From: Undaria pinnatifida
Lineage: Eukaryota; Sar; Phaeophyceae; Laminariales; Alariaceae
Assembly: GCA_012845835.1 (NCBI GenBank)
Contig: JABAKD010000108.1
Location: forward strand, 226,001 to 290,000
Direction: 5' to 3'
DNA: 64,000 nucleotides
Shown: positions 2,041 through 56,622 of the stretch, one piece after another
How positions within the stretch are numbered: position 1 is the first letter of the stretch
Layout: each line of letters begins with the position of its first letter
The notes under the pieces: generated by a model
Database searches by the model: none
Seen by the model: only the letters and a program-made list of their open reading frames with translations
What the model was told of the DNA's origin: nothing
Program-made: the position numbers and the translations under genes

Positions 2041-3885
2041 AGGAGGTGTGCGGCAGTGTGGCCGTACACGACCAGGGGGGGACGGGGACGCGGCAACGGG
2101 GCCGTACACGACACGGCAGGGGGGGAATGTGACAACGAACCGCGCAAGAAGGGGACGAGGGGGGGGGTGCGGAAACTGGGACGTACACGACCAGACGAGG
2201 GGAGAACGCGGCAGAGGGGCCACACAGAACGGGGAACGACGAGGCAAAGAGAAGGGGGCTGAGGGGCGACGAGAGAGAACGGCCAGGACGGGGAAAGGGC
2301 GGAGAAAGGGGTCGCGCAAAGAGAAAGGGGGGGAGTGAGCGGCAACGGGACCGCACACGCTCATGGAAGGTGAGCCTGCGGCAACGGGGCCGAAGGGGTG
2401 AGGCGTGGAAAAGGAGCCATTTGGGAGAGAGGAGGGAAAGAGCGCAGCAACGGAACCGCGCACGAGCTGCATAAGGCAGAACGGGAGGTGCCCCTACTGT
2501 GGAGGGGTGCTATGGAGCGCCTGGGGAAGACAGGGGGAAGACGCAGATGAAAGGAGATCGACGGTTGGGGGTCGTGGCTGGTGTGGGGCGAGAGATGTGG
2601 ATAAATATAGGAGTGGGCTTGGGGAAGGTGGGGTGGGCGTTGGGAAGGGAGGGGGAAGAGGTGTGCGGCAGTGTGGCCGTACACGACCAGGGGGGGACGG
2701 GGACGCGGCAACGGGGCCGTACACGACACGGCAGGGGGGGAATGTGACAACGAACCGCGCAAGAAGGGGACGAGGGGGGGGGTGCGGAAACTGGGACGTA
2801 CACGACCAGACGAGGGGAGAACGCGGCAGAGAGGCCACACAGAACGGGGAACGACGAGGCAAAGAGAAGGGGGCTGAGGGGCGACGAGAGAGAACGGCCA
2901 GGACGGGGAAAGGGCGGAGAAAGGGGTCGCGCAAATAGAAAGGGGGGGAGTGAGCGGCAACGGGACCGCACACGCTCATGGAAGGTGAGCCTGCGGCAAC
3001 GGGGCCGAAGGGGTGAGGCGTGGAAAGGGAGCCATTTGGGAGAGAGGAGGGAAAGAGCGCAGCAACGGAACCGCGCACGAGCTGCATAAGGCAGAACGGG
3101 AGGTGCCCCTACTGTGGAGGGGTGCTATGGAGCGCCTGGGGAAGACAGGGGGAAGACGCAGATGAAAGGAGATCGACGGTTGGGGGTCGTGGCTGGTGTG
3201 GGGGGAGAGATGTGGATAAATATAGGAGTGGGCTTGGGGAAGGTGGGGTGGGCGTTGGGAAGGGAGGGGGAGGAGGTGTGCGGCAGTGTGGCCGTACACG
3301 ACCAGGGGGGGACGGGGACGCGGCAACGGGGCCGTACACGACACGGCAGGGGGGGAATGTGACAACGAACCGCGCAAGAAGGGGACGAGGGGGGGGGTGC
3401 GGAAACTGGGACGTACACGACCAGACGAGGGGAGAACGCGGCAGAGGGGCCACGCAGAACGGGGAACGACGAGGCAAAGAGAAGGGGGCTGAGGGGCGAC
3501 GAGAGAGAACGGCCAGGACGGGGAAAGGGCGGAGAAAGGGGTCGCGCAAAGAGAAAGGGGGGGAGTGAGCGGCAACGGGACCGCACACGCTCATGGAAGG
3601 TGAGCCTGCGGCAACGGGGCCGAAGGGGTGAGGCGTGGAAAGGGAGCCATTTGGGAGAGAGGAGGGAAAGAGCGCAGCAACGGAACCGCGCACGAGCTGC
3701 ATAAGGCAGAACGGGAGGTGCCCCTACTGTGGAGGGGTGCTATGGAGCGCCTGGGGAAGACAGGGGGAAGACGCAGATGAAAGGAGATCGACGATTGGGG
3801 GTCGTGGCTGGTGTGGGGGGAGAGATGTGGATAAATATAGGAGTGGGCTTGGGGAAGGTGGGGTGGGCGTTGGGAAGGGTGCCGT
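2041..3885. repeat. Three tandem 615-bp units
   Basis: Copies lie at 2041-2655, 2656-3270 and 3271-3885. The motif GTGTGCGGCAGTGTGG recurs at 2046, 2661 and 3276, exactly 615 bp apart, and copies differ by only a few bases. Each unit starts with the G-rich minisatellite motif and continues into non-minisatellite sequence with a short AT patch (GTGGATAAATATAGG). The third copy passes directly into the tyrosine-recombinase remnant, so the triplication lies upstream of, and may have amplified, the 5' end of that element. Confidence 0.93.
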
Positions 3886-3954
3886 GGCTTCTGCAGCTGA
3901 GCAAGCTGCATCTGAATGGGCGACAGAAAGGGGGGAGAGGGGGGGACGGTTCGT

Positions 3955-5180
3955 GACGCGGTTCAAGATGGACCTAGCGGAGTTGGGGGAAGAGGTGGGG
4001 ACGCAAGCGCTAAGGATGAAGAGGAGGGTGAACACGTGGCCGACGGCGGAAGAGGCCGGGCCTCTACCAGTACCGGAGTTCAAAGCAACGCGGGCGTGGC
4101 TGGACATGGCGCCCCTATACATGGATGGGGGGGTGCGAGGGAGGGCTGGGGGAGGGAGAAAGGGGGGGGGGGGGGGAGGGAAGAGGGCAACCGGCGGGGG
4201 CAAGCGGGGCGGGGGGGAGGGGTGTAGGAGGAGAATGCAAAGGAGTGGCGGTTCACTTTATCACGAGCAGTGGGGCGGCTGTCTCTGCCGCTGCAGCACT
4301 TCAGGATTCAGGGATTGAAGAAAGGAATCAGGAGGGCGCATGCGGAGGCGAGGAACCAGGCACGGGTAAGGAGGCCGCTGACGTGGGAGATGATCAGAGT
4401 GTTGGAGGAGAGTATCGGCGCGTGGGGGGTAGGGGGGAGGATCGTGGGGATCGAGCTGGCACTGACGTATCAGCTGCTGCTGAAGGCCTCGGAAGTATTC
4501 GCGGAGGAAGAGGAAAGGTGCATGAGGTTTACTGCTTGAGTCGGGGGGATGTGGCTTTCTTCGAGAAAGGGGCGCAGCTGGGACCGGGAGGGAAGGAAGC
4601 CGCGGATACGGTGGGGGTCCGTTTCAAGGGGGAAGAAGGGAGACCAGGGGAGACAAGGCGCGGTAGCCGTGAGAACTAAAGGATCTGGGGGGGGTCGGGG
4701 GGGGGGTGGAAGGGAACGTAGTGGATCTGATGGCGGAGCTAGTAGGCTACTACGCGAGGACGGTTCCGGGGGGGGGGGAACGCCCCGCCGATGACATACA
4801 GTAGCGGGGGAAGATGGAAGGTATGGACGAAAGGGCAAGCGATGATTTGCTTAAGGAGCGGGCTGGAGAGAGTGGGGAGGAAATGGAAGAAGCAAGGGAA
4901 GGGGGCAGTGGGAGAGCTGGTTCCACAGGAATTCGCGCTGCACTCCCGAAGGATAGGGGGAGCGACAAGGCTGGCGGAGATAGGAACATAGCCGTGGGTG
5001 ATCAAGATAGAAGGAAGGTTGGCGGCGCAGGCATTCATGGGGTACGTGAGATCGAATATGGAATACCCCCTTTGGGTGTCAAGGATATCGGTAGGGAGGT
5101 CAGGAGCGCCGGGCAGATAGCCGGGGCAAGGGACGAGATGGGGGGGGGCAGGGCGGGGGTGAGGGTAGAATAGCGTAGGC
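3955..5180 (+). pseudogene. Tyrosine recombinase (Crypton/DIRS-Ngaro type), frameshifted remnant
   Basis: Several consecutive plus-strand frames together resemble a tyrosine-recombinase (phage-integrase-fold) protein. The piece at 4270-4539 contains LPLQHFRIQGLKKGIRRAHA and RRPLTWEMI, followed by a helical segment (ALTYQLLLKASEVFAEEE). A shifted frame near 4520-4680 continues with VYCLSRGDVAFFEKGAQLG. The piece at 4791-4991 has FALHSRRIGGATRLAEIGT, which matches the catalytic H-x-x-R box. The next frame (4993-5110) reads PWVIKIEGR then AFMGYVRSN, placing the nucleophilic tyrosine. At least four frameshifts and G-run indels separate the parts, so it is not translatable. Family knowledge: such recombinases mobilise Cryptons and DIRS/Ngaro retroelements. 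No adjacent RT decides between them. Confidence 0.75.
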
Positions 5181-5206
5181 GCGGGCGTAGAACGCGGCTT
5201 CCGAAT

Positions 5207-6065
5207 GGGCTTCTGGTTGTTGAGGTTATCTGTCGGGAAGGGGGGCAGGTCAGCCGCGTACAATAGCCGGGAGAGGGAGCGGGGGAGGGAGAGGGGGGCA
5301 AGGAAAACCGGACGAGGGTGAGCCGTCAGTTTCCACCCCCCCGCCCTCCCCCGCGGGGCGGGGGAACACCATGATAATAATGAACACGCACATTTTCGTG
5401 AAGAGGGGAGCAAAATGTAAGAATGTCGGAACAGTCTGGAGTTTGGCGGAACGAAGAGGAAATATCGGAGAACCGGGTAGCATAGGGGGGGCGGGGTGGT
5501 TCCAGGGGAAGGAATAGCGGAAAATAGGAGGACCTCAGCAGCAACAACGTAGCACACCAGCAGCACACCAGCAGCGAGTATCGGACACAACAACCGGTAG
5601 AGGAAGAAGGGAGTAGCGCCCACGCAGCAGCGACAGCAGCAGCAGTAGCAGTAGGGAGAACACGTCGGCAGGAGCATAGGGGTAGAGAGGTGGCACGGGG
5701 AGACACCAATAGCAATCTCCCACCCTCCCACCCGATTGCTTCACGAGCAGGAGGGCTAAAGCGGAGGGAGGGGGAGGAGGGGCGAGAGGAGGGAAGGAAG
5801 GAAGGGCATGGATTGATTCCTTCATCTTCCGGTGTGTGCGTGCCTTCGCGGGGGGGGGGCTTCTGGTTGTTGAGGTTATCTGTCGGGAAGGGGGGCAGGT
5901 CAGCCGCGTACAATAGCCGGGAGAGGGAGCGGGGGAGGGAGAGGGGGGCAAGGAAAACCGGACGAGGGTGAGCCGTCAGTTTCCACCCCCCCCACCCTCC
6001 CCCGCGGGGCGGGGGAACACCATGATAATAATGAACACGCATATTTTCGTGAAGAGGAGACCAAA
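5207..6065. repeat. About 209-bp direct repeat pair flanking a 440-bp CAG-rich spacer
   Basis: The segment 5207-5415 recurs at 5857-6065 with an offset of 650 bp and almost no differences. Both copies start at GGGCTTCTGGTTGTTGAGG and end near CGTGAAGAGG. The spacer holds imperfect AGCAGC/AACA repeats at 5528-5650. The pair lies just downstream of the tyrosine-recombinase remnant. Ngaro/DIRS elements carry split direct repeats at their 3' side, so this could be that terminus, but a simple local duplication explains it equally well. Confidence 0.8.
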
Positions 6066-41433: not shown

Positions 41434-41702
41434 TGTTAAATTCAAGGTGGGGGACACAGAGTGCCCCCTGCAGGTCTGCCAATTGAGCAGGTCCTCGGAG
41501 AGTACTCACTTTCGTTCCTTCGTAGAGATATAGCTTTATTCGTTTCCACCAGAGCCCGGGATAGCTTCTGAGATCGGAGGCGCGTGCCTCCGATCTAATT
41601 CCTAACTTCCCCGAATATAAACCGCCAACCTTATCATACAAAACCCATCCTAATGATCTCAAATTCGGATACCTACAGGCCTTTCGAGGCCGTATCTTAG
41701 CA
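41434..41702 (-). repeat. Gypsy 3' LTR with TATA, hairpin and AATAAA
   Basis: TGTTAA...TTAGCA ends (the partner LTR ends TTAACA). On the coding strand it shows a TATA-like TTATATTC (41620-41613), an 11-bp perfect hairpin stem (41571-41581 with 41586-41596, 4-nt loop) and AATAAA (41540-41535). This is the order expected for promoter, R region and polyadenylation signal. Confidence 0.9.
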
Positions 41703-42556: not shown

Positions 42557-43315
42557 TCAACTGGCCACGGCCGCGCCTCGAGATTCGTCTACGTTACGTT
42601 GGATTCCTCGAGGAAACGCACTGGCGATGTGAACTTGCAAGCACCATGAGCCTCGTACGGCTCCCGTTGAAGTCGTGTGGCGCGTCGGGGGAAGAGGGAG
42701 TTTAATCGGTCTCGGGTCGTCCAGAAAGCGGACCAGGTATACCTTGTCCTCGGTAGTGCTCGCGCTGATTTTTCCTAGCCCCCATAAACCATCGTCTTCC
42801 TTGTACCAAAAGTGGGCTCCCTTAGGGAGTACTGTGTCGTGGTAGCGACGGAGCCAATCGGTGCGGGGAACACAGGAGTAACCCGGCGCTAGGAAACGTT
42901 CCCCGTTGTTGCGGGAGAGCTCACGCTGTGCCGCCTCGATCCGCATTCGGCGGTAAAGGCGGTTGGGTTGGCGGTGCTGGTCCGGGGTTCCGGGCCAATA
43001 ACGCAAGATGTGGGAGCGAGAGAGGTGAAGGTCCATTTCCCGCTCCCAGGACGGTTCGGAAAGTCCCGCCCAGTGCGTCTTGTATAGCACCGCGATGACG
43101 CCACCTCGCCCCCGTACCGACTGATGACCAGTGATCTGCTCCACCTCCAGCCGTTGGAGGGGAGTCGAAACGTCGTGTTGAGTGACGTGGTACGGCGGGG
43201 ACTTCTTGGAAAATTTGTTGAGCACATACTGTGTCAGCCCCGCCGGTAGGTATTTGGGCATGTCCCCGCTGTCGTGGGGGTTGGCACAGGGTTTGCAGGC
43301 GCTCGATGGCCACAC
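42557..43315 (-). CDS. Gypsy integrase tail: chromodomain plus Tudor-like domain
   Basis: In a 252-codon frame, residues about 56-107 read EVEQITGHQSV, then LYKTHWAGLSEPSWEREMDL and ILRYW. This is a chromodomain with the Y-x-x-HWxG and PSWE box. Residues about 160-215 read GAHFWYKEDDGLWGLGKIS, then VYLVRFLDDP, resembling a Tudor/PWWP-type barrel (WY...W.LGKI...Y.VRFLDD). Both folds bind modified histone tails in other proteins, so the pair likely guides integration. It follows the integrase after a +/-1 shift near 43280. The frame ends at a stop near 42557. Confidence 0.75.
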   Translation of the reverse strand: MWPSSACKPCANPHDSGDMPKYLPAGLTQYVLNKFSKKSPPYHVTQHDVSTPLQRLEVEQITGHQSVRGRGGVIAVLYKTHWAGLSEPSWEREMDLHLSRSHILRYWPGTPDQHRQPNRLYRRMRIEAAQRELSRNNGERFLAPGYSCVPRTDWLRRYHDTVLPKGAHFWYKEDDGLWGLGKISASTTEDKVYLVRFLDDPRPIKLPLPPTRHTTSTGAVRGSWCLQVHIASAFPRGIQRNVDESRGAAVAS

Positions 43316-45530
43316 GCCGACGAGCGTCCGAACCAGGCAGGTCGGAAGGGAGATCCAAATAAAGGAGGTTGCTTCCGAGCGGCGAGCCGTCCGGGGTCTC
43401 GGCGGCGGAGCAGGGACCGACGGCCAGGACCTTGCATGGGCCCGGCCAGTTAAGCGCGAGTTTGGCCTTGAGTACCTTGGCGTCGGTATTCGCCTTCACA
43501 CCCTGGCGGATGGTAGAGGCAGAATTGTATACCCATGCCCAACCACCCACAGTAAAGTTAGGTGCTGGACGCAGCGCGTTCGCGAGGGCGGAGTTTCTGC
43601 GGTTAACACGGGAAACGGTGAGGGCGTGGTGTGCGCGGACAATGTCGTTCGGGCGCTTTTGCCGGTCGGTGGCCAAATCGCAATAGGCCAGGTGGTCACG
43701 GGCCAGACTCTGGTGTCCCACGACACCTTTGCGGTCGAAAATCGTCGGGGGGAGCCGTGGGAGTCTGCCCATGTGGACCTTGTTGGGCGCCAAACCCGTC
43801 GCCGCGCTGACAGAGTTGTTGTAAGCGAATTCGACGTGGGGCAGATGCGAGTCCCAGTCGTCTTGTTGCTCGTTGACAACCATAGCCAGCATTTGTGCCA
43901 TAGTGTGATTTACCCGCTCAACGCCCCCGTTACAGTTGGGATGATATGAGCTTGTAGCAAGCTTGTGTACACGTAACAGCTGATATACAGCTTGTGAAAG
44001 CTTGGAGCAGAACTGCAGTCTGTTGTCCGAGAGTATGGTGCGCGGGCACCCCCACAAGGGGATGTATTGGTTTACCAGGATATTGGCTGCACCTTCCGCG
44101 GTGAACTCAGCGGCAGTGACGGGGAACATGTCGGCCCGACGACTGAAGCGATCGGTGAACAGCAGGATGTAGGTGTTGCCTCGTGGTGTTACCGGAAGGG
44201 GGCCGAAGTAGTCAACACTGACGGCGATACCTGGACCTTCCGGCAGAGGCATTGTGATGATGGGCCAGCGGACAGTCAACCGTGGGGTTTTCCGCGCTTG
44301 GCACTTCAAGCAGTGGCAAAGCCACCACCGGGTACACACACTCATGCCAATCCACCAATAAAAACGCTCCAGCATGCGCAACGTGCGCGTGGTGCCAAGG
44401 TGGCAGGAGGCCGTCGGGTGGCAAGCTTGCATGATCCAAGGGCGCATGAGCAGGGGAACGTGGATGCGAACTGGCTCGTCGTTTTGCAAGCAAGCAGCTC
44501 GTCCCACAGAGTTCGGTTTGTCAGAGCTTGTTGGCGGTAGTGTCGGGTTACGGACGAGTAGGACGATGTCGTCGTCGGTTGTATGTAGCCGACCCTTACC
44601 CGCCAGTTCCTGGATGCCTGAGGGGGAGGGACGCTTGGGCGAGGGGTAGCTTGTCAAGAAGTCGGGTGGCAGGGCTGACGGCCGGCCGATAGAGATGTAA
44701 CGTATCGTGGCGTGGCACGTCCGCTCTGCGTGTTGTTCGCGCTTCCAATCGGCACGTGAATACCGCGCGACGGAATCCGCGAACCGCGACTCAGCAGCGT
44801 CGCCGAGGGCATCCGACCTTGTAAGTGTAGCCGGCGTTTTACCAGGAGGAGGCGTAAGCCGTAGAAGCGGAGTTCCCATGGGCTCTGCGTGGTCGTGGTC
44901 GGACGGAAGTGGTACCGTGCGGGCCGGCGGGTCGGCAAGAGTAGGGGTCGCGGCGACTGGCGGAGCCGGCCGCGGCCGTCGGGCTCGCGGCGGAGTTGTA
45001 ACTCGTCTGGACGATGGCTGGGGGACCCCGCCGGGCCCGAAGCCATAGTCGACAGCAGGGGGTGCCTTACCAGCTGCTGTTGCTGAACGCCGGCGCGTCC
45101 GAGTGGAGATGCGGTCCGAAAAGGGCGTCATCGTCTGGGGCGCCGGAGATCCAGGCGAGATTGGGACGGACGCGGTCGGGCCCATGGGCTCGACGGGGTT
45201 TGTCCCTTGTACCGAGCTCCGGGAAGGAGTCGGTTGGGCCACTGATGTCGTGGTAGCCGGGGCTTCGGCGGAGTCCTCGTTGGTCACGGTGGGTACAGCA
45301 AAAACCGAAGCGAAATCGTAGTCGGCTGTACGCGAGCCCCCACCTCGGCCGGGCGAGCTATCGACGGTGGCGGTGGATGCAGAAACACGAGCGACGAATC
45401 TCCTGGAAGGAGTAGGAAGGTCTTCAAGCCTCATACGTGGCCCGTGTGTGCGAAAATTGCAAAAGGCGGTAAGAGAGAGAGGAAGCCCACCCAAAGCATT
45501 ATTTTTGGTGCGGGGCATTAGCCCACCCAA
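42921..45530 (-). CDS. Gypsy integrase (catalytic core intact)
   Basis: An 869-codon frame. Residues 50-270 are a low-complexity Pro/Ser/Arg linker between RNase H and integrase. The zinc finger is H371, H377, C407, C410 (CHPTASCHLG, CHCLKC). The core follows with all three acidic residues: D440 (VSVDYFGPLP), D502 (LSDNRLQF) and E538 (NGGVERVNH). Residues 640-760 hold the GPY-like strand (FTVGGWAWVYN, LNWPGPCKVLAVGP). The frame passes into unrelated translation after about 43280, where the true protein continues in another frame to the chromodomain. An in-frame TGA at 45570-45572 separates it from RNase H. The enzyme inserts element cDNA into the genome. Confidence 0.88.
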   Translation of the reverse strand: MGGLMPRTKNNALGGLPLSLTAFCNFRTHGPRMRLEDLPTPSRRFVARVSASTATVDSSPGRGGGSRTADYDFASVFAVPTVTNEDSAEAPATTTSVAQPTPSRSSVQGTNPVEPMGPTASVPISPGSPAPQTMTPFSDRISTRTRRRSATAAGKAPPAVDYGFGPGGVPQPSSRRVTTPPRARRPRPAPPVAATPTLADPPARTVPLPSDHDHAEPMGTPLLRLTPPPGKTPATLTRSDALGDAAESRFADSVARYSRADWKREQHAERTCHATIRYISIGRPSALPPDFLTSYPSPKRPSPSGIQELAGKGRLHTTDDDIVLLVRNPTLPPTSSDKPNSVGRAACLQNDEPVRIHVPLLMRPWIMQACHPTASCHLGTTRTLRMLERFYWWIGMSVCTRWWLCHCLKCQARKTPRLTVRWPIITMPLPEGPGIAVSVDYFGPLPVTPRGNTYILLFTDRFSRRADMFPVTAAEFTAEGAANILVNQYIPLWGCPRTILSDNRLQFCSKLSQAVYQLLRVHKLATSSYHPNCNGGVERVNHTMAQMLAMVVNEQQDDWDSHLPHVEFAYNNSVSAATGLAPNKVHMGRLPRLPPTIFDRKGVVGHQSLARDHLAYCDLATDRQKRPNDIVRAHHALTVSRVNRRNSALANALRPAPNFTVGGWAWVYNSASTIRQGVKANTDAKVLKAKLALNWPGPCKVLAVGPCSAAETPDGSPLGSNLLYLDLPSDLPGSDARRRVAIERLQTLCQPPRQRGHAQIPTGGADTVCAQQIFQEVPAVPRHSTRRFDSPPTAGGGADHWSSVGTGARWRHRGAIQDALGGTFRTVLGAGNGPSPLSLPHLALLARNPGPAPPTQPPLPPNADRGGTA

Positions 45531-45569
45531 GCCGACACTCGGTATCGGGGAAGAAGGAGTGTACAGCCC

Positions 45570-46278
45570 TCAAGCCCGTATGAGGTAAATACCACCATCC
45601 TCAACAGGGGTAAGGCTCGTCGAACCATTTCGGTCGTGTTCCGTGGCAGGCTCCGGCAAGCCAGACAGGAAGTCAGCGTTGCCGTTTGCGCTTCCTTTTC
45701 GGTATTCGAGGGTGTAATCGAATGCGGTGAGGAACTCGAGCCATCTCTGGACTCGGCCGTTGTGATTTCCCACTTTGCCTATGTTTTCCAGAGCCTTGTG
45801 GTCTGAGAATACTCGGAACTTGGTGCCCCAAAGGTAGCCGCGGAGGCGCTTGAGAGCCCAGACGATGCTGCCAGCCTCCAAATCGAGAGGAGTCCAGTGC
45901 CTTTCCGAGTCGAGCGTAGCTCGACTGATGTACGATGGGTTTTATGGAGCCGTCCGTCTGCTCCTGTTCGAGAGCGGCTCCGAACCCGTCGATGCAGGCA
46001 TCGCAGTACACGTGGAACGGGCGTGTGCCGTCGGCGACGGCGTCCCAATCAGGGTAAACGAGGACTGGCGGGGTCGTGAGCTCCGCCAAGATTTCTCTTA
46101 CCAACTTCTCCATAGCAGGCGTAAAGGCAAACTTTACCCCCTTCCGAAGGAGTGCGTTAATAGGACGAAGCCTCTTCGATAAATCGGGCAAAAAATTGCG
46201 GTAATAGTTGATACCGCCCATGAGTGCGCGCGCCTGCTTAACGTCAGTGGCCATCGGCATATTGGTCAATGCCGACAC
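45570..46278 (-). pseudogene. Gypsy RNase H domain (frameshifted)
   Basis: The first part (frame 46278-45673) reads MGGINYYRNFLPDLSKRLRP, which is the RT thumb/connection, and FHVYCDACIDGFGAALEQ with the first catalytic Asp. After a 1-base shift near 45890 the frame 45881-45570 continues MEAGSIVWALKRLRGYLWGT, RVFSDHKALENI and YRKGSANGNADFLSGLP. The catalytic set D...E...D(SDHKAL)...(NADxLS) is present across the two frames. Confidence 0.82.
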
Positions 46279-47510
46279 TTTTTTCCGAATTTGGGCGTAG
46301 GCCTGCTGGAGAAATGGAGTGGCCTAGAAAGTTCGCATCGGTAGCGCCCAAACGCGCCTTCGAGGGGGAAAGCTTGAGATTGTGCTTTCGAAGGCGTTCG
46401 AAGAGAGCGAATCGTCCGAACATGCGTTACCGGGTCGGAGTCGAACACGATAACATCGTCGAGGTAAGCTGCCACCTGTGTCAAGACCTTGATCACCTCA
46501 TTGATAACCTTGACGAACCACCCAGCCGAGGCGCTGCTGCCCTGGGGCATAACGAGCCACTCATAAAGGCCCGTGGGTGTGCAGAACGCTGTAAGGGGAA
46601 CTGTGTCCTTGTGTGCCGTTATCTGGTGGAACGAGGAAACCAAGTCGAACAGGGAACACCCGACCTGAGCCCAAGGAGTCCAGGACCTGGTCCCAGCGCG
46701 GAATCGGCAGTTGGCTGAGTTGCTAATTTGGTTGAGCTTCTTGTAGTTCACCGTGATCCTCACACCGCCAGATTTTTGCGGGATGACCACCAGCGGGTTC
46801 GAGTACGGCGAGGTCGAGTGCTGAATCAGCCCAGCCGCGAGGTACTGGTTAAGGGTCGCGTCCACTTTTCTGGCCAGTATAGGCTTTATGCGATGGGGTC
46901 GTGAAGTGACCGGAGCGCTGCCCTCCGGAACCGAGATTTCAAAGGGCATTAGGGAGCATGACCCAAAATCCGTCTTCGAGGTGGAGAACACGTCAGAAAA
47001 GTCGCAGAGCACATCCCCCAGTTGCTCAATGGTCGGGGGGTCCCAACCAGGGTCGTGTAAGTCGAACGCAATCTCCCGCAGGTGCGGTGGGAGTCGGGCC
47101 CAGACGCGTAGAAATGCAGAACGTTGGACCGGGTTCAAACGTTTCATAAGCGTCGGCGAGGGCGACGGTACGGCGAAAACTATCCCCTCCGCGTCCGTCG
47201 GGCTCGCGACCGCAGAGACCTGGCTGTCCGAAGTCTGGCCAGGGTGGGGACCCGCAGCCTTGATAGTGTGTTGCAAGGCACCCAGCGGGATGCGCAAAAG
47301 TGGAGCGTCGGCGACCCCGATAAGGTCGCGTGGCTCGAGGTCCGCGACACCTATGACGGGAAGCACCTGTTGTCCTGAAGCAACAAAGTGTTTCTGTTCC
47401 GAAAGAATATCCGGCTGCGGCAGTATGTCGACAAGATAGTGTCCTGTGAGCGCAGGAGAGCCGTTACTGCGCACCAAGTTGACCGCGAGCAGTTGGGGCT
47501 CGTCCGACAA
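46266..47510 (-). CDS. Gypsy reverse transcriptase
   Basis: A 414-codon frame. Motifs in order: PHRIKPILARKVDATLNQYL, GLIQHSTSPYSNPLVVIPQK, GGVRITVNYKKLNQIS, LFDLVSSFHQI, TAFCTPTGLYEWLVMPQG and the catalytic YLDDVIVF. About 23 residues between NQIS and LFDL (near 46640-46730) are out of frame and then restored, so two compensating indels are likely. The first catalytic Asp (FDL) and both Asp of YLDD are intact. The last 40 residues are read in a wrong frame; the true continuation is at 46278. The domain copies element RNA into cDNA. Confidence 0.88.
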   Translation of the reverse strand: MSDEPQLLAVNLVRSNGSPALTGHYLVDILPQPDILSEQKHFVASGQQVLPVIGVADLEPRDLIGVADAPLLRIPLGALQHTIKAAGPHPGQTSDSQVSAVASPTDAEGIVFAVPSPSPTLMKRLNPVQRSAFLRVWARLPPHLREIAFDLHDPGWDPPTIEQLGDVLCDFSDVFSTSKTDFGSCSLMPFEISVPEGSAPVTSRPHRIKPILARKVDATLNQYLAAGLIQHSTSPYSNPLVVIPQKSGGVRITVNYKKLNQISNSANCRFRAGTRSWTPWAQVGCSLFDLVSSFHQITAHKDTVPLTAFCTPTGLYEWLVMPQGSSASAGWFVKVINEVIKVLTQVAAYLDDVIVFDSDPVTHVRTIRSLRTPSKAQSQAFPLEGAFGRYRCELSRPLHFSSRPTPKFGKKCRH

Positions 47511-47584
47511 ACTGACGCCTGTAGAGCCATCATAGCGAAGGTGGAAAGCACCGTTCGATGCTGCGGGGTCGACGGCATACGCCG

Positions 47585-48300
47585 CTACGCCTGCTGTGGC
47601 GTGGTGGGCAACGTCAGCTCGCCCAAAACCCGATTATCGAGAGGACGAGGGGGCAGGGCGCGGTACGAACTGGTGTTGAAGCGCATCCACCTGTCGCGGC
47701 CCAGCAAGACAGCGTGCTGCATGACCGAAGGAGGGACCACGCATGCCCACACCGCGAGAGAGCATGTTGGTTCTTTTTCGAGGAAGAATTGAACGCTCAG
47801 ACGGATGTGGGTCGCGGTCCGTAAAGGGGCGGATTCGCCAAAACCACCCCAGGAGCGAGGGCTGCTGGGCCGCTCGCACGCCGACGAGGCGGCGCCTACC
47901 GATAGCATACGATCCAACACGTCACGACGGATGAAGGTTTGGGGGGAGCCAGTGTCAAGCAGCGCTGTACATATGTAGGGCGCAATAGCGTCCCCTCCGC
48001 TATGTATTGCAATATCGGTAGTGAAAGAATCGTCGTCCAGCGTCACGGTACCCCCGACGAGGCAGGGGCCATGTTCTGGCAGTGCGCGGTCTGAGGCGCC
48101 GCGAGAAGCTACCGCCAAAACCTCCGGGCTTTGATCGGCGGGTGTACCCGAAAAATAGGCCGAAGGAGGGCCTTGGGCAGCGCCGACCGCGGTCCCCGAG
48201 CGCGACTGCTGAGCGGACGAAATTTCATGGGTTCCAGCATTCCCGGTGGGCCTGCGGAATCGACGAGGGAAGGCCGGGTGTGGCGATCCGTCCTCGCTGT
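47585..48300 (-). CDS. Gypsy aspartic protease with NADAR C-terminus at its start
   Basis: In the frame 48409-47585 residues 14-35 (QDPHKWRGKHLLGEALSAVR) are the C-terminal end of the NADAR domain. After a linker, residues 149-160 read TALLDTGSPQTF, the DTG active site of a retropepsin. Later AVLLGRDRWMRF matches the second conserved strand (LLGRD). The protease normally cleaves the polyprotein as a dimer. The NADAR end and protease share one uninterrupted frame, which shows they were encoded as one polyprotein. Confidence 0.85.
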
Positions 48301-49182
48301 CGCGAATTGCTTCGCGAACGGCAGAGAGTGCCTCACCGAGCAAATGTTTTCCTCTCCACTTGTGTGGATCTTGGCGTGGGGGTCGTCCGCCCGGAGACCT
48401 ATACCCCACACTGTGTCTAGAGGACTGGCCTCTGCCAGAAATTTGTTGCCAGTGCTCAAAAGGTGATTTTTCATGGTTGGGTTATGCGTAAATTTGGCAT
48501 AGTTGCCAGATAACACGGCATTTTGCTTCTCCCTGTCCCAAACGGCGGCGTCAAAATTGCGCACGCCTCGACCAACGCGTTTGCGCGTGCTGGGGTCAGA
48601 CGATGACATGATGAGCTCCACTGCGCGATGGTCTTTAAAAAGCCGAGCCTTCTCAGCCATCATAAACTGCTCCGCGCAAGAATATGATACGTCGTCGACG
48701 ACAAACGACGAAGGAGACCACTGCGAGAAAAAGGAGGGCGGTTGCCAGAACAACACTACTCTGTCTGTAGAGTATTCGAGGGAAGGGTCAAAAGTCGACG
48801 GTGCCAACCCGTCGGAGGCCGTGTTAGGCATATGAGCTTGAAATGTCCCCGTCTGGGGACACCAGTCTCTGGCACTTTGGGCCTGCAGCGTCCCCGTCTG
48901 GGAACGCCCGGCCTCGGGAGCACGGCGCGAGCCCGAACCCACGGGTGGTCGCGTCGTGGCCTTGTCGCTCTTTGGCGTAAAATCGCAAGGAACTGCTCTC
49001 ACTGCACCCGAAGGGACAGGGGGCTCGGAGCTGTTACTGCTTGACGAGAGGCGCGATTCTTCCGTATCTTCACGGGAATAGCGTCCAGCTGATCGGGCTG
49101 GAGGCCGTGGCGTCACCACTGGCCCGTTGCGCAGTGTCGGATCTATATTCTGTGCCACTGGGGCAGACGTAGCCTGATGCAC
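48109..49182 (-). CDS. NADAR (YbiA-like) domain in the gypsy polyprotein
   Basis: In the frame starting at 49182, residues 141-271 read VVLFWQPPSFFSQWSPSSFV, VDDVSYSCAEQFMMAEKARL, KRVGRGVRNFDAAVWDREKQ, NYAKFTHNPTMKNHLLSTGN and EASPLDTVWGIGLRADDP. This matches the NADAR/DUF1768 family motif by motif: F-W-x-S-Q-W, Y-x-C-A-E-Q-x-M-M-A-x-K, W-G-I-G-L. After a 1-base slip in a C5 run near 48378 the domain ends in the protease frame with WRGKHLLGEALSAVRE; the usual Asn of G-K-N-x-L-G reads His. Known family members hydrolyse N-glycosidic bonds (YbiA in riboflavin-intermediate removal; DarG1-type NADAR removes ADP-ribose from guanine). The residue 1-140 head is Ser/Pro/Arg-rich with two QTGT-Q-A repeats. 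Its role in a retroelement is unknown. Confidence 0.85.
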   Translation of the reverse strand: MHQATSAPVAQNIDPTLRNGPVVTPRPPARSAGRYSREDTEESRLSSSSNSSEPPVPSGAVRAVPCDFTPKSDKATTRPPVGSGSRRAPEAGRSQTGTLQAQSARDWCPQTGTFQAHMPNTASDGLAPSTFDPSLEYSTDRVVLFWQPPSFFSQWSPSSFVVDDVSYSCAEQFMMAEKARLFKDHRAVELIMSSSDPSTRKRVGRGVRNFDAAVWDREKQNAVLSGNYAKFTHNPTMKNHLLSTGNKFLAEASPLDTVWGIGLRADDPHAKIHTSGEENICSVRHSLPFAKQFATARTDRHTRPSLVDSAGPPGMLEPMKFRPLSSRARGPRSALPKALLRPIFRVHPPIKARRFWR

Positions 49183-49189
49183 GTGGGTT

Positions 49190-49970
49190 AGCGTGCTTAA
49201 AGACGGAGCAGGGCCCGTAGACCCTGTGGGCGTCTTCGAGAGCGGGGCTCGGGCAAGTGGAAATAAATTCTTCGCCCGAGGGGGCTCCTTCCCGTTAGCC
49301 CTCTTGGAGGAGAGAGACGAGGTAGCTAAGCTTGTCGGCTCCTCCTTGATGGGAAAAGGATAGAGCGCCCGCTACTATCGCGAGGAGACACCGGATCAAA
49401 TCTTGGAAAATATCTCGGTGCATATGGGTTGGCTTTCCCACACCTCAAACCAACCGCCGCTTTACGGTCAGGAAGAGGTGGAGACGAACCCGCTCGCGTA
49501 TGGGGGCGACGCGTCGTCGCCGCAGTCTTCTTGCTGCGCGACGCGTGCCTGGGGGGAGCGTGCAAGGTACAGGCTCCTTAGTCATGGTTGAGAGGGGCAG
49601 CGTTAGGGGCGCGTGCCTCCGTTGTCGAGCTAGAGCCACGGCAGGGGTTAACGGCGTTGGAAGTGCTGGTCCCCATTGCCGAACTCGGACCATGATCGAG
49701 GGGGGCATCACTGTGGGCGCGCACCCCCTTCGTTGAAAATGTAACCTGGCTGGGGGGGGGCATGCTGGGAGCACTGGTCCCCACCGCGGGCACTGCGCCG
49801 TGAAAGTCATCAGGCGACGTAGGAGCCCGTGGGCTCTTGACAGAAATAATTTGTGCCGCGCCACGTGTAAGGCGAACGACAGGCACTCGAGCATCTTGTG
49901 AAAGCAAAGGAAGTGTCCCCGACAGTGCCGTCGGCGTACGGATCGGGTGTGCCGTACCGCCGTCGCCCTG
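49190..49970 (-). pseudogene. Gag-NADAR linker region of the gypsy element
   Basis: The gag frame remains open after its stop at 49971 except for stops near 49578 and 49326. It is Pro/Ser/Ala-rich (SVKSPRAPTSPDDFHGAVPA) and has no recognisable domain. Whether the stops are damage or natural ends of gag cannot be told from one copy. Confidence 0.4.
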
Positions 49971-51485
49971 TCAGTTGCCAGTGCGAAAGGTACCTGGTTG
50001 TCGCGCGTTGGGGTTTCCGCTCGGATTGTGGGTTGCCCCGAAACGCTTCCCCGGAGCAGACACGGAAGCCGAGGAAGCTGGCGAGGGCGGGACAGCACCT
50101 TGTTGGCCAGGCGTGTATGTGCTGTTGTTACCGCTGTGGCTGTTTGTCTGTCCCTGGTCCCGTGAATACCCTCGTGATTGGTTTGAACGATTTCGGCGAT
50201 TTTTGTTGTACATTTGCGAGCGAGAAGACCGTCCGTCGCGGCGGTAGCTAACCATACGTGCTTGCCACCGTCGGAAAACGTCATGATCGCCAAGTTGGCC
50301 AAGTTCAGGGTTTAGACAGCCGCTGGCGTTGATAAAGGGATGCCTACAGTTGCGTAAGGAGTGAGTGTCTTCGTGACAGTTGAGGCAATGACCCCTGTTT
50401 TCTCGGAGAACCGCGGCGCGGGCAGAGGGCGTGAGGAGGCCGCTCCAGAGGGGAGGGTCGTCGGTCTTGAACGAGGCACTAACATCGAAAACTTCTGCAT
50501 AGTGTTGTTCTTTTAGAGGCCAGCAGTTGGACATTTTGTCGAGCCAGGGGTCGGTGGAATCAACAATCGGCATGACAATCGGATTATGGCTCGAACCCGT
50601 CTGCCAAGAAGGCGACTGGGACAGCACTCGGCCCTGGCCGCGCTCATGAACGGCGGGCCGGGGCCCCGACGGGGCGGATGACCGCGATCCCGTCGAAGAA
50701 ACAGGTAGAGAAAAATGTTTTTCGCCGTTGACGGCAGGTGTCTTATTGTGCGCCAAGTCACTAAACGCTTTCCACATGGCATCTAATAAGGCGTATGGCC
50801 GTGGGTCCGTAGCCTTCGAGCCAGGGTATAACGTAGGCATGAGCGTCGGAAACTACTCGTTGACCGCCATCCTAACCACCTCCAGCACGACATTCGTCCC
50901 CGGGGAAAAAACACGCTCACTCCCCGTGACTGCCGATACTAGCACACGGAACTCCCGACTGAAATCAGAAAAAGGCGTGCCGTTACACACTTCAAAAGTG
51001 TGCAACTTATTGTAGCCTTCGCCCGTGTCGACCCGGTCAAAGTGCGTCACGAGCAGGCGTAGCAGGAGGGTGAAAGCCTCGGGCCCAGATGCTCCTCCGT
51101 CCAACGCTCTTGACACCTGTCCAAAGAAATCGTCGATCAAGGTGGTCATGCGAGCGGTCGTGGGCCTGTCAGGTGTTATGGCACGGTTGAATGCCAGGCG
51201 GAGGGGGTGGATCCAACCGGGAACCCACGTGGGGGCACGTACACCCTCTTGGCAACGGTCGTCACAGCGCATGAGTATGTCAGTCATGGCAGCCCGAACC
51301 GAACGCGTGAGTTGCTGTGTGCCGTCAGACTTGTTCAAAGAGGCGGGGAACGGTAGCACAGAAATGCATGATACGTCCTTGTGGGAGAGCTTAACATAGG
51401 CGCGCCAAACCGAGTCATCGAGCGTGGATTTAGCTAGAGCCGCGGCGGTAGAAAGTTCGGCGGTACGCTCGCGGGCCAAATCCAA
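49971..51485 (-). pseudogene. Gypsy Gag capsid and nucleocapsid (one in-frame amber stop)
   Basis: Two co-linear same-frame parts: 51485-50853 (helical, SVWRAYVKLSHKDVSCISVL, FEVCNGTPFSDFSREFRVLV) and 50840-49971 (MPTLYPGSKATDPRPYALLD, then the CCHC knuckle CLNCHEDTHSLRNC and an Arg/Ser/Asn-rich tail YNKNRRNRSNQSRGYSRDQG). Only a TAG codon near 50850 interrupts, flanked by RMAVNE and FPTLMPTL, so it is most simply a Gln-to-stop mutation. The product would form the particle and bind RNA. The second part ends at a stop at 49971. Confidence 0.8.
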
Positions 51486-52918
51486 AGAAACAGGTTGGTG
51501 TGGTCACCCGACACGGTTAGTTTGCTCAGCCGGTCGGCGGAAGAGGCAATATCCACCAGGGAAGGAGTTACTTGCCTCCTGCCAGCTACCACGGTCAACC
51601 TCGCCGTGGTCCGTGTTCGAGCTCGAAGACGAGCAGGAGGACGTTGACCAGTCGTCCCACGCTGAGGGCCCTCGTGTGCTCTTTCGCCGTCCTCCGGTCC
51701 CTCCTCCCGAGCTGCGACCGCCGCCCCGGTTGGTTCGGGCCTAGTTGCTCCCTTGGCGGCGCTGTGGGCCACCACCAGTACCCGACGCTCCTCCCGCGCT
51801 TCCACCACCGTTGCCACCACCGCGGCGGTTGTGGTGGCCACCACTCCCACCATTTTCCCCGTTTCCCCCACTCTGGCCGCCACCACCCCCGGAGTTGCCA
51901 TCTCCACGGTTGCGGTCCCCCCGATCACCGCTGCCACCGCGCCGCTGTTTGGTGGAGCGCCTTTCTTCCAGCGCTTCCTTTGGAGTCGGCCACAGGACTG
52001 GGTCAGGGGCGTCGTCGTGGGCCAATCTTAAGGCATTGACCAAAGCGAGGGTAGGTGCTCGCCTCATCTGCCCTAAGGCGGACGAGTTGTCCCGGCGAGC
52101 CCAGACTGCTCCGACCGAAAGGTCGTCCGCATTGAACGACGACCGTCGCTCTGAAGTTAGAAGGGCCGTGGCCGCTGCTATCACCGCCTCCGCCAGATAC
52201 GCCGAGAACTCGACCCTCGGCGTGGTAGCCATGTACTGGACGCTGCCAGACATGAAAACGTCGTCCCCGGGTCGTGTATCTTGGGAAGCGACACTCAGCG
52301 GGCGCGCCGAGGAAGGGGCAGCTCTCGCCGGAGTCGATGTAGCTGAGAGGGCAACGGCTTGGCGTGCTCTCTCTACCGCGCGGGACGCCTCGCGAGCAGT
52401 GGCCCTCGCCTGATCGATGGCGTGATCCTCACGGCGTCGACGTTCGTCATCGAGCCGTTTGCGTTCCTCTCGTCGAAGCAGGGTCGCGTTGGCGTCGTCG
52501 AGAGCTCTTTGGGCCCGAGAAATTCAGACTCTGAGTCTGAGGGGCCGGCATGGGAGCGCTGGTCTCCGTAGCTCTGGGGAAGGCACTCTGTCGAGCGCGC
52601 AGAGGTCAGATGTCGACGGTGGTGCTCTGAGGACAGCTGGAGATGCTCCCTCGAGGCTGGGGATATTTGTCGTCGTTATGTCTCCGCGCCCGGTAGGAGT
52701 TTTTCCGCGTCGTCGACCGGCGAGTCGGGGTGGTCGGTCGGTGTGCCGTGTTGTTGACTCGTGTTGGAGTCACTATCGTCGTCAAGGTTTTTGGCGCGTC
52801 CTCCTCGTCTCGATTCGCGGAACCTCGAGCGTTCCCGTCCTTCTCCCTGGGCCTCCTGGATGGGGCGCGTGGAGGACCGCAGCCTGCCCGAGTAGCCCCC
52901 ATCGTCACTGGTGGACAT
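51434..52918 (-). pseudogene. Gypsy Gag N-terminal region (frameshifted, low complexity)
   Basis: The start candidate is ATG at 52918 (MSTSDDGGYSGRLRSSTRP), an acidic/Arg-rich head. Frame 52253-51741 has a helical part (VEFSAYLAEAVIAAATALLT, NALRLAHDDAPDPVLWPTPK) then a Gly/Asn/Arg-rich tract (GGSGDRGDRNRGDGNSGGGG). Frame 51937-51434 carries the junction to capsid (SADRLSKLTVSGDHTNLF). At least two shifts are needed to join these to the capsid frame. Confidence 0.55.
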
Positions 52919-53354: not shown

Positions 53355-54480
53355 GGCATCATTCAACCTAGGCGGGGGGGTAGCACAGGAAATCGTCGAC
53401 CAAAACGCCCACGCTCATCGGACCAAAACAGGCAGAGTTTAACCTAGGTGTAGCGTGAGGGGTAGCACAGTGAAGGGTCGCCCAACACGCCGACACTCAT
53501 TGCACCAAAACAGGCGGCATTTACCCTATGTGTAGTGTAGGGGTTATCACAATAAAGGTTCATCCAACACGCTGACACTCATCGTACCAAAACAGGCAGC
53601 ATTTAACCTAGGTGTAGTGTAGGGGGGTAGCACAGTGAAGGGTCGCCCAACACGCTGACGCTCATCGCACCAAAACAGGCAGCATTTAACTTAGGTGTAG
53701 TGTAGGGGTGGAAGCACAGTGTAAGATCGCCCAACACGCTGACACTCATCGCACCAAAACAGGCAGCATTTAACCTAGGTGTAGTGTAGGGGTGGAAGCA
53801 TAATGAAGAGTCGCTCAACACGCTTACTCTCATCGCACCAAAACAGGCAGCATTTAACCTAGGTGTAGTGTAGGGGTGGAAGCAAAGTGTAAGAGTCGCC
53901 CAACACGCTGACACTCATCGCACCAAAAACGGCAGCGTTTAACCTAGGTGTAGTGTAGGGGTGGAAGCACAGTGGAGGGTCGCCCAACACGCTGACACTC
54001 ATCGCACCAAAACAGGCAGCATTTAACCTAGGTGTAGTGTAGGGGGGGAGCACAGTGAAAGGTCACCCAACACGCTGACACTCGTCGCACCAAAACAGGC
54101 AGCATTTAACCTAGGTGTAGTGTAGGGGTGGAAACTTAGTGAAGAGTCGCTCAACACGCTGACACTCATCGCACCAAAACGGGCAGCATTTACCCTAGGT
54201 GTAGTGTAGGGGGGCAGCACAGTAGAGGATTGCGCACCAACCGTATAAAAACAAAAACGGGCAGCATCCGCCCCAACAAGAGTGTAGGGGGGGGGGGGGT
54301 AGCACAGTGAAGGATCGCGCAGCCAACCGTGTAAAAACGGGCAGCATCTGCCCCCACAGTAGTGTAGGGGGGGGGTAGGACAGTATACGTTCGCGCACCA
54401 ACCGTCTAAAAAACGGGCAGTATAACCCCCCCAAACAAGGTAGTTTCCCCCGACCGCACTAAAGGGGGACGCTCGCGCCT
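53355..54480. repeat. 83-85-bp minisatellite in the gypsy 5' leader (about 10 to 12 copies)
   Basis: TGTAGTGTAGGGG recurs at 53531, 53613, 53696, 53780, 53864, 53949, 54033, 54116 and 54200. Units include GGTCGCCCAACACGCTGACA and CACCAAAACAGGCAGCATTT. Diverged units continue to about 54480. Open minus frames through it are repeat artefacts. Confidence 0.95.
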
Positions 54481-56353: not shown

Positions 56354-56622
56354 TGTTAAATTAAAGGTGGGGGACACAAAGTGCCCCCTGCAGGTCAGCC
56401 AATCGAGCAGGTCCTCGGAGAGTACTCACTTTCGTTCCTTCGTAGAGATGTAGCTTTATTCGTTTCCACCAGAGCCCTGGATAGCTTCTGAGATCGAAGG
56501 CGCGTGCCTCCGATTTAGTTCCTAACTTCCCCGAATATAAACCGCCAACCTTATCATACGAAACCCATTTAAATGATCTCAAATTCAGATACCTACAGAC
56601 CCTTCGAGGCCGTATCTTAACA
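56354..56622 (-). repeat. Gypsy 5' LTR (269 bp)
   Basis: TGTTAA...TTAACA perfect 6-bp terminal inverted repeat. AATAAA on the coding strand is at 56460-56455. It pairs with 41434-41702. Confidence 0.92.

What the first reader, a model, noticed from the sequence alone, without database searches (positions are those of the whole stretch)
48290..48762. NADAR (ADP-ribose/N-glycoside hydrolase) domain built into a Ty3/gypsy polyprotein
Seen: a near-complete NADAR domain lies between the CCHC gag and the DTG protease on the same strand, and its C-terminus (WRGKHLLG) shares one open frame with the protease. One slip in a C5 run separates the rest. Known: NADAR proteins cleave N-glycosidic bonds, including removal of ADP-ribose from guanine in DarT1/DarG1 systems, and YbiA acts on riboflavin intermediates. 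Inference: the element may use it to strip ADP-ribose marks from its RNA or cDNA, or to counter a host ADP-ribosyl-based defence. This would be an anti-defence enzyme carried by a retrotransposon. I am not sure whether such fusions have been catalogued.
Basis: partly seen in the sequence, partly recalled or inferred. Interest (0 to 1): 0.9.

Follow-up and report, generated by a model that had tools for sequence, protein, structure and literature searches.

The report
ADP-ribose enzyme domain inside kelp retrotransposon
A family of jumping genes in a kelp genome carries, inside its own replication polyprotein, a domain that in bacteria and elsewhere removes ADP-ribose from DNA and RNA; the same fusion has already been reported in another brown alga, so this is a well-preserved new member of a known kind whose purpose is still untested.

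Summary
A YbiA-type NADAR domain (PF08719, E 8.6e-40; frameshifted near its end in this copy) lies at window 48302-48750, minus strand, between a CCHC gag and a DTGSP protease of an LTR element. It is no private insertion: the same genome, very probably Undaria pinnatifida, gives 150 NADAR matches over the Pfam cut-off (capped search), nine of them in uninterrupted 2,473-codon pol frames; one such copy has identical LTRs. Residues that published work calls catalytic are kept. Codon changes between families A and B show constraint. Against six elements of unnamed source the domain is more conserved than the protease region; against Ectocarpus and family B it is less conserved than RT. Pol follows gag in the same frame behind a conserved UGA, so NADAR is probably made by readthrough, as part of Pol. 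[quoted passage not shown] Added here: kelp, intact native frames, the UGA junction, a link to brown-algal single-domain NADARs, and a second, divergent NADAR type. The anti-defence role is plausible but untested.

The parts
41434..41702 (-). 3' LTR of the element (TGTTAA...TTAGCA)
   Evidence: repeat D3 (93%); 254 of 273 compared positions identical to the other LTR; exact ends set by eye
42921..45569 (-). integrase part of pol: H2C2 zinc domain 44286-44456, rve core 43941-44234 (27.6 bits, below its cut-off of 32.6), C-terminal tail
45570..46323 (-). RNase H region, in two overlapping frames (45570-45941 and 45673-46323)
   Evidence: PF17917 E 7.1e-19, PF17919 E 2.3e-9
46266..47633 (-). reverse transcriptase frame (RVT_1 46395-46784)
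   Evidence: PF00078 E 1.1e-13
47933..47956 (-). aspartic protease motif DTGSPQTF
48361..48750 (-). NADAR domain, profile positions 2-144; catalytic-type residues E at 48670-48672, K at 48649-48651, E at 48430-48432
48302..48376 (-). NADAR C-terminus, profile positions 139-163, in the frame shared with the protease
   Evidence: E 0.014 alone; continuous in intact copies
48751..49970 (-). Pro/Ser/Thr-rich linker between the gag stop and NADAR
   Evidence: the native linker has no match in other elements at E 1e-3
49971..49973 (-). in-frame UGA between gag and pol, candidate readthrough stop
49974..50852 (-). C-terminal part of gag with CCHC zinc knuckle at 50346-50387
50853..52523 (-). upstream gag frames, interrupted in this copy
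   Evidence: one stop-to-stop frame of 970 codons up to the UGA in the C20 copy
53377..54213 (.). 84-bp tandem repeats in the 5' leader
   Evidence: arrays of like period and other length near other copies
56354..56622 (-). 5' LTR (TGTTAA...TTAACA)
   Evidence: exact ends set by eye

Best explanation
The window holds an old, decayed copy of a Ty3/gypsy family whose Pol polyprotein normally carries a YbiA-type NADAR domain just upstream of the protease. SHOWN: the domain belongs to the family and is kept across families; native intact pol frames exist; the residues named as catalytic are conserved; NADAR lies downstream of a conserved UGA that ends gag. INFERRED: ribosomes sometimes read through the UGA, so NADAR is made as part of Gag-Pol, enters the particle in low amount with RT and integrase, and is released or flanked by the protease. 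INFERRED and untested: as an ADP-ribosylhydrolase it removes ADP-ribose from guanine in the packaged RNA or the cDNA. Such adducts would block reverse transcription or mark the element. They might come from host or microbial ADP-ribosyltransferases, or from stray chemistry. The source of NADAR was most likely an algal cellular gene, or a myxobacterium-like gene that also gave rise to the algal one (inference from the trees).
For: Family-wide: 150 of 150 scored NADAR places over the cut-off, nine in 2,473-codon and five in 2,371-codon frames without a stop. Recent movement: copy C20 has identical LTRs (271 of 271 compared bases) and CTTC on both sides. Order gag-UGA-linker-NADAR-PR-RT-RH-IN. 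Of 30 family A loci, 26 keep the junction: 25 UGA, 1 UAA; the other 4 lack it. Catalytic-type E, K, E are invariant in alignments of 23 and 32 proteins; all five tallied positions are intact in 34 of 40 genomic copies examined. Constraint: family A against B, pN 0.379, pS 0.737, pN<pS in 1000 of 1000 bootstraps. Against P0183 (unnamed source), NADAR 56%, RT 55%, PR region 49%, linker no match. Model mean pLDDT 96.3. Published: NADARs, including a Phytophthora one, remove ADP-ribose from guanine in DNA (PMC11543638, passages); the NADARs tested also do so in RNA (PMC11833690, passages).
Against: No biochemical or cell evidence for this domain. No source of guanine ADP-ribosylation in this alga was found or could be sought (the DarT-family search did not complete). 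NADAR is less conserved than RT against Ectocarpus (61% to 72%), and against family B less than RT (48% to 79%) and than the protease of B-like copies (56%). dS between A and B is near saturation; B against C shows no clear constraint (pN 0.038, pS 0.057, 781 of 1000 bootstraps); the eight intact A copies vary too little to test. Two family A copies have changed one catalytic-type residue (L043, L045). Copies without gag and NADAR sit at three or more sites, so NADAR is not needed in cis by every copy. Readthrough is not shown; re-initiation at a Met about 70 codons downstream is possible.
Confidence: 0.45

Rival explanations
1. NADAR acts in RNA metabolism rather than in defence: it processes or binds ends or modified bases of the element's RNA to help packaging, reverse transcription or translation, without a host ADP-ribosyl attack.
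For: This is the published guess for the Ectocarpus elements (PMC12477816). [quoted passage not shown]
Against: No substrate is named. NADARs tested were inactive on RNA phosphate-end ADP-ribose (PMC11833690, passages).
Confidence: 0.25
2. NADAR acts on a metabolite (N-glycosidase on riboflavin intermediates or an NAD-derived nucleotide), changing the host cell or particle rather than the element's nucleic acid.
For: E. coli YbiA is an N-glycosidase on riboflavin intermediates (as told in PMC9303266). The domain here is of the glutamate (YbiA) type.
Against: A low-abundance Pol domain inside a particle is an odd place for a metabolic enzyme (inference). YbiA proteins tested also act on guanosine-ADP-ribose (PMC11125620, passages).
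Confidence: 0.12
3. A non-catalytic role: NADAR is kept as a folded nucleic-acid or nucleotide binding module of Pol.
For: Many invariant residues beside the catalytic-type ones; catalytic-type residues are lost in a few copies.
Against: The E, K and E named as catalytic are invariant across retro, algal and bacterial NADARs that share 43-75% identity with the first row.
Confidence: 0.12
4. Passenger: NADAR was caught once and is carried without effect.
For: Some copies without NADAR and gag have spread.
Against: Six of six elements of unnamed source keep 55-59% of NADAR, more than of the protease region, while the linker is not alignable; pN below pS between A and B; present in Ectocarpus too.
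Confidence: 0.05
5. A cellular NADAR gene that an element landed in, or an assembly chimera.
For: Only the frame slip in the window copy.
Against: The same order in native intact copies and in an Ectocarpus protein.
Confidence: 0.01

Closest known systems
NADAR-bearing Gypsy lineage of Ectocarpus sp. 7 (Gypsy-12_Ec32 and kin), PMC12477816, Genome Biology 2025
   Same: [quoted passage not shown] The paper reports putative C-terminal chromodomains in three of its four Gypsy lineages and names Gypsy-12 as an example. An Ectocarpus protein found here (P0182, 1,398 aa, NADAR-RT-RH-IN) shares 61% of NADAR and 72% of RT with family A.
   Different: Kelp instead of Ectocarpus. Described here and not met in the passages and first part of section 5 that were read: the gag UGA junction, two divergent NADAR types, copies without gag and NADAR, and grouping with brown-algal single NADAR proteins. 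The paper favoured possible horizontal transfer because of bacterial blastp hits. Whether P0182 is a Gypsy-12 copy was not tested (the paper's sequences were not fetched).
NADAR hydrolases that undo guanine ADP-ribosylation (E. coli C7 NADAR of DarT1 operons; Phytophthora nicotianae NADAR), PMC11543638; nearest PDB chain 8bau
   Same: PF08719, same E and K, glutamate in the last strand as in Phytophthora. That 8bau is the Phytophthora protein is recalled, not from a call.
   Different: Not paired with DarT in anything seen here; sits in a retrotransposon polyprotein; activity not tested.
Tx1 LINE ORF1 NADAR domains of Crassostrea gigas (PMC12477816, section 5)
   Same: NADAR in a retrotransposon protein.
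   Different: Non-LTR element, ORF1, divergent; not compared here.
Roniviridae (nidovirus) NADAR (one sentence in PMC11287256)
   Same: NADAR in an RNA-genome element.
   Different: Exogenous RNA virus; not compared here.

Membership tests
NADAR superfamily (PF08719) | profile match over the curated cut-off | tested here: met
   137.1 bits in the window, 171.8 in L009, cut-off 35.1
NADAR superfamily (PF08719) | YbiA-like fold | tested here: inconclusive
   confident model (pLDDT 96.3, pTM 0.90) and profile matches by sequence to 8bau 1.3e-37 and 2b3w 9.1e-18; the structure comparison did not complete
NADAR superfamily (PF08719) | conserved E and K of the active site (P. nicotianae E43, K50) | tested here: met
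   the numbering was mapped by motif and spacing on the 8bau chain (offset of 2 assumed)
YbiA subfamily | glutamate, not aspartate or histidine, in the last strand (P. nicotianae E125) | tested here: met
   E112 of the domain invariant in 32 of 32 aligned rows; definition from PMC11543638 and PMC11125620 passages
guanine-ADP-ribosylhydrolase | removes ADP-ribose from guanine in DNA or RNA | not testable with these tools
   needs an assay
Ty3/gypsy LTR element | PR-RT-RH-IN order between LTRs | tested here: met
   protease by the DTGSP motif only (PF12384 11.5 bits, below cut-off 21.2); rve 32.0 bits against a cut-off of 32.6 in the intact copy
Ty3/gypsy LTR element | TG...CA LTRs and short target duplication | tested here: met
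   C20 copy: identical LTRs, CTTC on both sides (read by eye); no exact duplication at the old window copy
[quoted passage not shown]
   P0182 of Ectocarpus sp. CCAP 1310/34: NADAR 61%, RT 72%; identity of P0182 with the paper's families not tested
Ectocarpus NADAR-Gypsy lineage (Gypsy-12_Ec32) | C-terminal chromodomain on integrase | tested here: inconclusive
   tail alike to P0182 by eye, but no Pfam hit at E 1 or better

The most novel reading that the evidence does not exclude
A retrotransposon-borne anti-defence enzyme: packaged NADAR strips ADP-ribose that host or microbial ADP-ribosyltransferases put on guanines of the element's RNA or cDNA. Its NADAR has been replaced or driven to fast change in one family (B), as in an arms race: A and B share 79% of RT but only 48% of NADAR, while the more distant element P0183 shares 55-56% of both RT and NADAR with A.
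Probability: 0.25. Interest if true: 0.85.

Novelty: new member of a known kind. Interest (0 to 1): 0.5.

Why it matters
Reversible ADP-ribosylation of nucleic acids is known mostly from bacterial toxin systems; its role in eukaryotes is open. A multi-copy family that has kept a NADAR with its active-site residues, with young native copies, gives a concrete place to ask what a eukaryotic NADAR is for and whether retrotransposons meet ADP-ribosylated guanine. Because the Ectocarpus paper reported the fusion first, the step forward is the broader, sharper anatomy and a likely link to algal cellular NADARs.

Tried and rejected
NADAR swap in family B. The RT of the very copy that gave L067 is 79% like A's (C22:20731770); over 183 common columns, with L054 (a B-like copy without NADAR) standing for B, A-B is 0.776, A-Ectocarpus 0.732, B-Ectocarpus 0.721; yet NADAR A-B is only 48%. 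Held A+B clade: p-AU 0.0247 with 60 rows and 0.002 with 39 rows from which long and degenerate rows were dropped, but 0.345 with 59 rows, 34 of the earlier ones plus 11 phage and 14 bacterial NADARs (chosen from 160 loci). A+B+Ectocarpus: p 0.0033, 0.369. So a swap is not established; fast change of B is as good. All retro as one clade was not rejected (p 0.223, 0.082, 0.13); all retro plus algal single proteins gave p 0.133 and 0.026. B rests on one intact piece (L067); one search also used a degenerate piece (L068) and a fragment (P0123).

Bacterial origin by direct transfer: not favoured over a shared origin with algal genes. The retro NADARs other than B group with brown-algal single NADAR proteins (99/89, 95/93, 99/97). 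A set with the named myxobacterial (Nannocystis) proteins comes next (90/88); that fork is open. Whether algal genes gave rise to the retro domain or the reverse is open (retro without B as one clade: p 0.534). No close cellular NADAR stood out in the kelp genome itself (150 scored of 1,679 candidates, all at 57% identity or less; introns not modelled).

Family without NADAR: of 20 RT copies fetched (of about 50, counted by eye, with no NADAR listed nearby), 4 have NADAR upstream and 16 have none within about 3.5 kb. Of the 16, 9 lack the protease too, 3 keep only its C-terminal part, and 4 (L053, L054, L055, L064) keep the protease, with no NADAR and no sequence shared with each other beyond about 630 bases upstream of it, so that gag and linker seem gone too (gag itself was not searched there). 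No copy was found that lost NADAR alone.

Selection within family A: eight intact copies give NADAR piN 0.0035, piS 0.0046, too little to judge. The 19-copy figures (linker 0.80, NADAR 0.45) rest on few sites, and the region after NADAR there (1.21) is spoiled by frame slips; not used. Hairpin at the UGA: z -3.6 in a 59-nt window chosen after the fact, -1.08 in 121 nt; suggestive only. A viral-contig search with one protein confirmed no relative; one with an alignment did (108).

Never answered because machines were busy: the structure comparison, the DarT-family search and the genome search with the L054 LTR-like stretch.

Full report
WHAT IS THERE. The frame 48109-49371 (minus strand) matches the Pfam NADAR model at E 8.6e-40 (137.1 bits against a cut-off of 35.1), profile positions 2-144; the last 25 positions lie in the overlapping frame 47585-48481, which goes on into a DTGSPQTF protease motif. 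Around it, all on the minus strand, are a CCHC box (50346-50387), RT, RNase H, the H2C2 zinc domain and the integrase core. The whole lies between two 269-bp LTRs at 41434-41702 and 56354-56622; 254 of 273 compared positions are identical, so this copy is old (ends set by eye). It carries a frame slip inside NADAR and other breaks.

THE GENOME. The window's assembly has 511,146,479 bases in 68 contigs. One contig is 16,510,065 bases long, which is exactly the scaffold N50 given for Undaria pinnatifida in PMC7058681 (passages; total 511,280,173 bases, 114 scaffolds). The host is therefore very probably that kelp; no call named it.

A FAMILY TRAIT, NOT A PRIVATE INSERTION. A search of the genome with the window protein gave 104 matches from 100 scored of 3,385 candidates. 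A search with PF08719 gave 150 matches from 150 scored of 1,454 candidates, all over the cut-off; nine lie in frames of 2,473 codons and five in frames of 2,371 codons without a stop. In a native intact frame (L009/L010) the pieces give NADAR at 408-557 of P0001 (E 1.9e-50), and RT, RNase H, H2C2 and rve (just under its cut-off) in P0002; the protease is seen by its DTGSP motif. Copy C20 has identical LTRs (271 of 271 compared bases), CTTC on both sides, a 970-codon stop-to-stop frame with gag and a 2,473-codon pol frame: this family moved recently.

THE UGA JUNCTION. In four of four copies read across the junction, gag and pol are in the same frame and separated by one UGA; the window copy has it at 49971-49973. 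Of 30 family A loci, 26 keep the junction (25 UGA, 1 UAA; in 3 of them a one-base slip lies between it and NADAR) and 4 are truncated or rearranged there. NADAR starts 402 codons after the stop. By analogy with gammaretroviral gag-pol readthrough (recalled), I infer that NADAR is made only in Gag-Pol amounts; re-initiation at a Met about 70 codons in cannot be excluded. A hairpin that encloses the UGA folds better than 199 of 200 shuffles in a 59-nt window picked afterwards, but a 121-nt window is unremarkable.

ACTIVE SITE AND FOLD. By the alignment to PDB chain 8bau, the residues that PMC11543638 names E43, K50 and E125 in the Phytophthora protein correspond to E32, K39 and E112 of the domain (offset of two in the chain numbering, assumed; that 8bau is this protein is recalled). 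They are invariant in alignments of 23 and 32 proteins that mix retro, algal and bacterial NADARs. Together with D117 and W120 they are all intact in 34 of 40 genomic copies examined; the exceptions are L043, L045, L060, L062, L065 and L068. AlphaFold2 gives mean pLDDT 96.3 and pTM 0.90. A profile of the family finds 8bau (1.3e-37) and E. coli YbiA 2b3w (9.1e-18) by sequence; the structure comparison did not complete. The glutamate in the last strand makes it YbiA-type by the published rule (passages of PMC11543638 and PMC11125620).

CONSTRAINT. Between family A and family B the domain differs at codon positions 1, 2, 3 by 66, 50 and 93 of 151 codons, pN 0.379, pS 0.737 (near saturation), pN below pS in 1000 of 1000 bootstraps; A against C 69, 54, 90 of 150, likewise 1000 of 1000; B against C, 91% alike, gives 7, 6, 6 and no clear signal (781 of 1000). 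Against six element proteins of unnamed source (P0180, P0181, P0183, P0185, P0187, P0188) NADAR shares 55-59% and the region with the protease 43-57%, NADAR being the higher in all six; RT is 55% in the one with a long overlap (P0183); the 402-aa linker has no match at E 1e-3 in any, a fair test only for the three that hold over 200 residues upstream of NADAR (P0181, P0183, P0188). Against the Ectocarpus protein P0182, NADAR shares 61% and RT 72%. Against family B, NADAR shares 48%, RT 79% and the protease of B-like copies 56%. So NADAR is held about as tightly as RT in one comparison and less tightly in two, but always far better than the linker. Within the family the intact copies are too alike to test.

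COPIES WITHOUT NADAR. An RT search scored 150 of 1,899 candidates. I fetched 20 of the roughly 50 RT copies (counted by eye) that had no NADAR listed near them. Four do have NADAR; sixteen have none within about 3.5 kb, of which nine lack the protease as well and three keep only its C-terminal part. The remaining four (L053, L054, L055, L064) are family-B-like: in the first three the same LTR-like start follows three different flanks and runs through a short leader straight into the protease, with no room for gag, linker or NADAR. These look like a deletion derivative moved in trans (inference; the search that would have shown LTR pairs did not complete). They suggest that NADAR is not needed in cis, nor is gag; no copy read here lost NADAR alone.

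WHERE THE DOMAIN CAME FROM. Searches found 1,172 relatives of the A domain (best 120 listed), 57 of the B domain and 21 proteins of polyprotein size. Trees were built from 60, 39 and 59 rows, picked by me from 121 rows that cover at least 85% of the query and, from 160 viral and bacterial loci; long or degenerate rows were dropped. In all three trees family A, the Ectocarpus element, P0180 and the P0183 group fall together with single-domain NADAR proteins of brown algae (Pylaiella, Ectocarpus and Scytosiphon; one more without a species name) (99/89, 95/93, 99/97); a set with Nannocystis proteins comes next only. This fits one origin shared with an algal cellular gene; direction unknown. Family B stands apart on a long branch. 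A held A+B clade is rejected in two sets (p 0.0247, 0.002) and not in the third, broadest one (p 0.345). A swapped-in NADAR and a fast-changing one are both open.

WHAT IS KNOWN. PMC12477816 (Genome Biology, 29 Sep 2025; [quoted passage not shown] Five paper searches bear on the fusion or on NADAR; among the listed hits this is the only paper I recognised as reporting NADAR in a Gypsy element (one search listed 20 of 104 papers, 20 of 1,360, all of 1, 4 and 2). In its main text 'readthrough', 'stop codon', 'kelp' and 'Undaria' do not occur. Its supplements could not be read.

MECHANISM, WITH LIKELIHOOD. Most likely (0.45): a Pol-encoded, particle-borne ADP-ribosylhydrolase that cleans guanine-linked ADP-ribose from the element's RNA or cDNA. 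Biochemical precedent: a Phytophthora NADAR and bacterial ones remove guanine-ADP-ribose from DNA (PMC11543638), and the NADARs tested do so from RNA (PMC11833690); passages seen. Whether the adducts are a host defence, an attack by microbes, or background is unknown; the anti-defence reading deserves about 0.25. Rivals are a general RNA-processing role, with SNA-3 as precedent (PMC9303266, passages), a metabolite N-glycosidase, and a binding-only module.

VERDICT. It is a new member of a published kind, with added anatomy. Interest 0.5.

Noticed in passing
window 49971-49973 and L009:6517-6575: The conserved UGA between gag and pol lies inside a strong predicted hairpin (z -3.6 in a window chosen afterwards; -1.08 in a longer one), a possible readthrough signal in a brown-algal element.
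   Followed up: partly
L053, L054, L055 (and L064): Family-B-like copies in which an LTR-like start and short leader run straight into protease-RT, with no NADAR and no room for gag or linker; three different flanks; L053 and L055 about 99%, L064 95% like L054. Probably moved in trans.
   Followed up: partly
L067 against L009: Two NADAR types in one genome: 48% alike although the RTs of their families are 79% alike.
   Followed up: partly
window 53377-54213: 84-bp tandem repeats in the element's 5' leader; arrays of like period lie upstream in other copies.
   Followed up: no
L010, end of the pol frame: The polyprotein ends in a tail that by eye resembles a chromodomain followed by a Tudor-like stretch and is shared with Ectocarpus P0182; no Pfam match at E 1 or better.
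   Followed up: no
window 1-6000: G+C 62-71% with strong GC skew and purine-rich tandem repeats, unlike the rest of the window.
   Followed up: no
P0055, P0080, P0104, P0119: Single-domain NADAR proteins of brown algae with a Cys/His-rich N-terminus by eye; closest non-retro kin of the element's domain.
   Followed up: partly
L069-L148: 108 NADAR relatives in viral contigs, 80 kept, several on contigs over 300 kb; the 11 used in the tree have no stop in the matched stretch.
   Followed up: no
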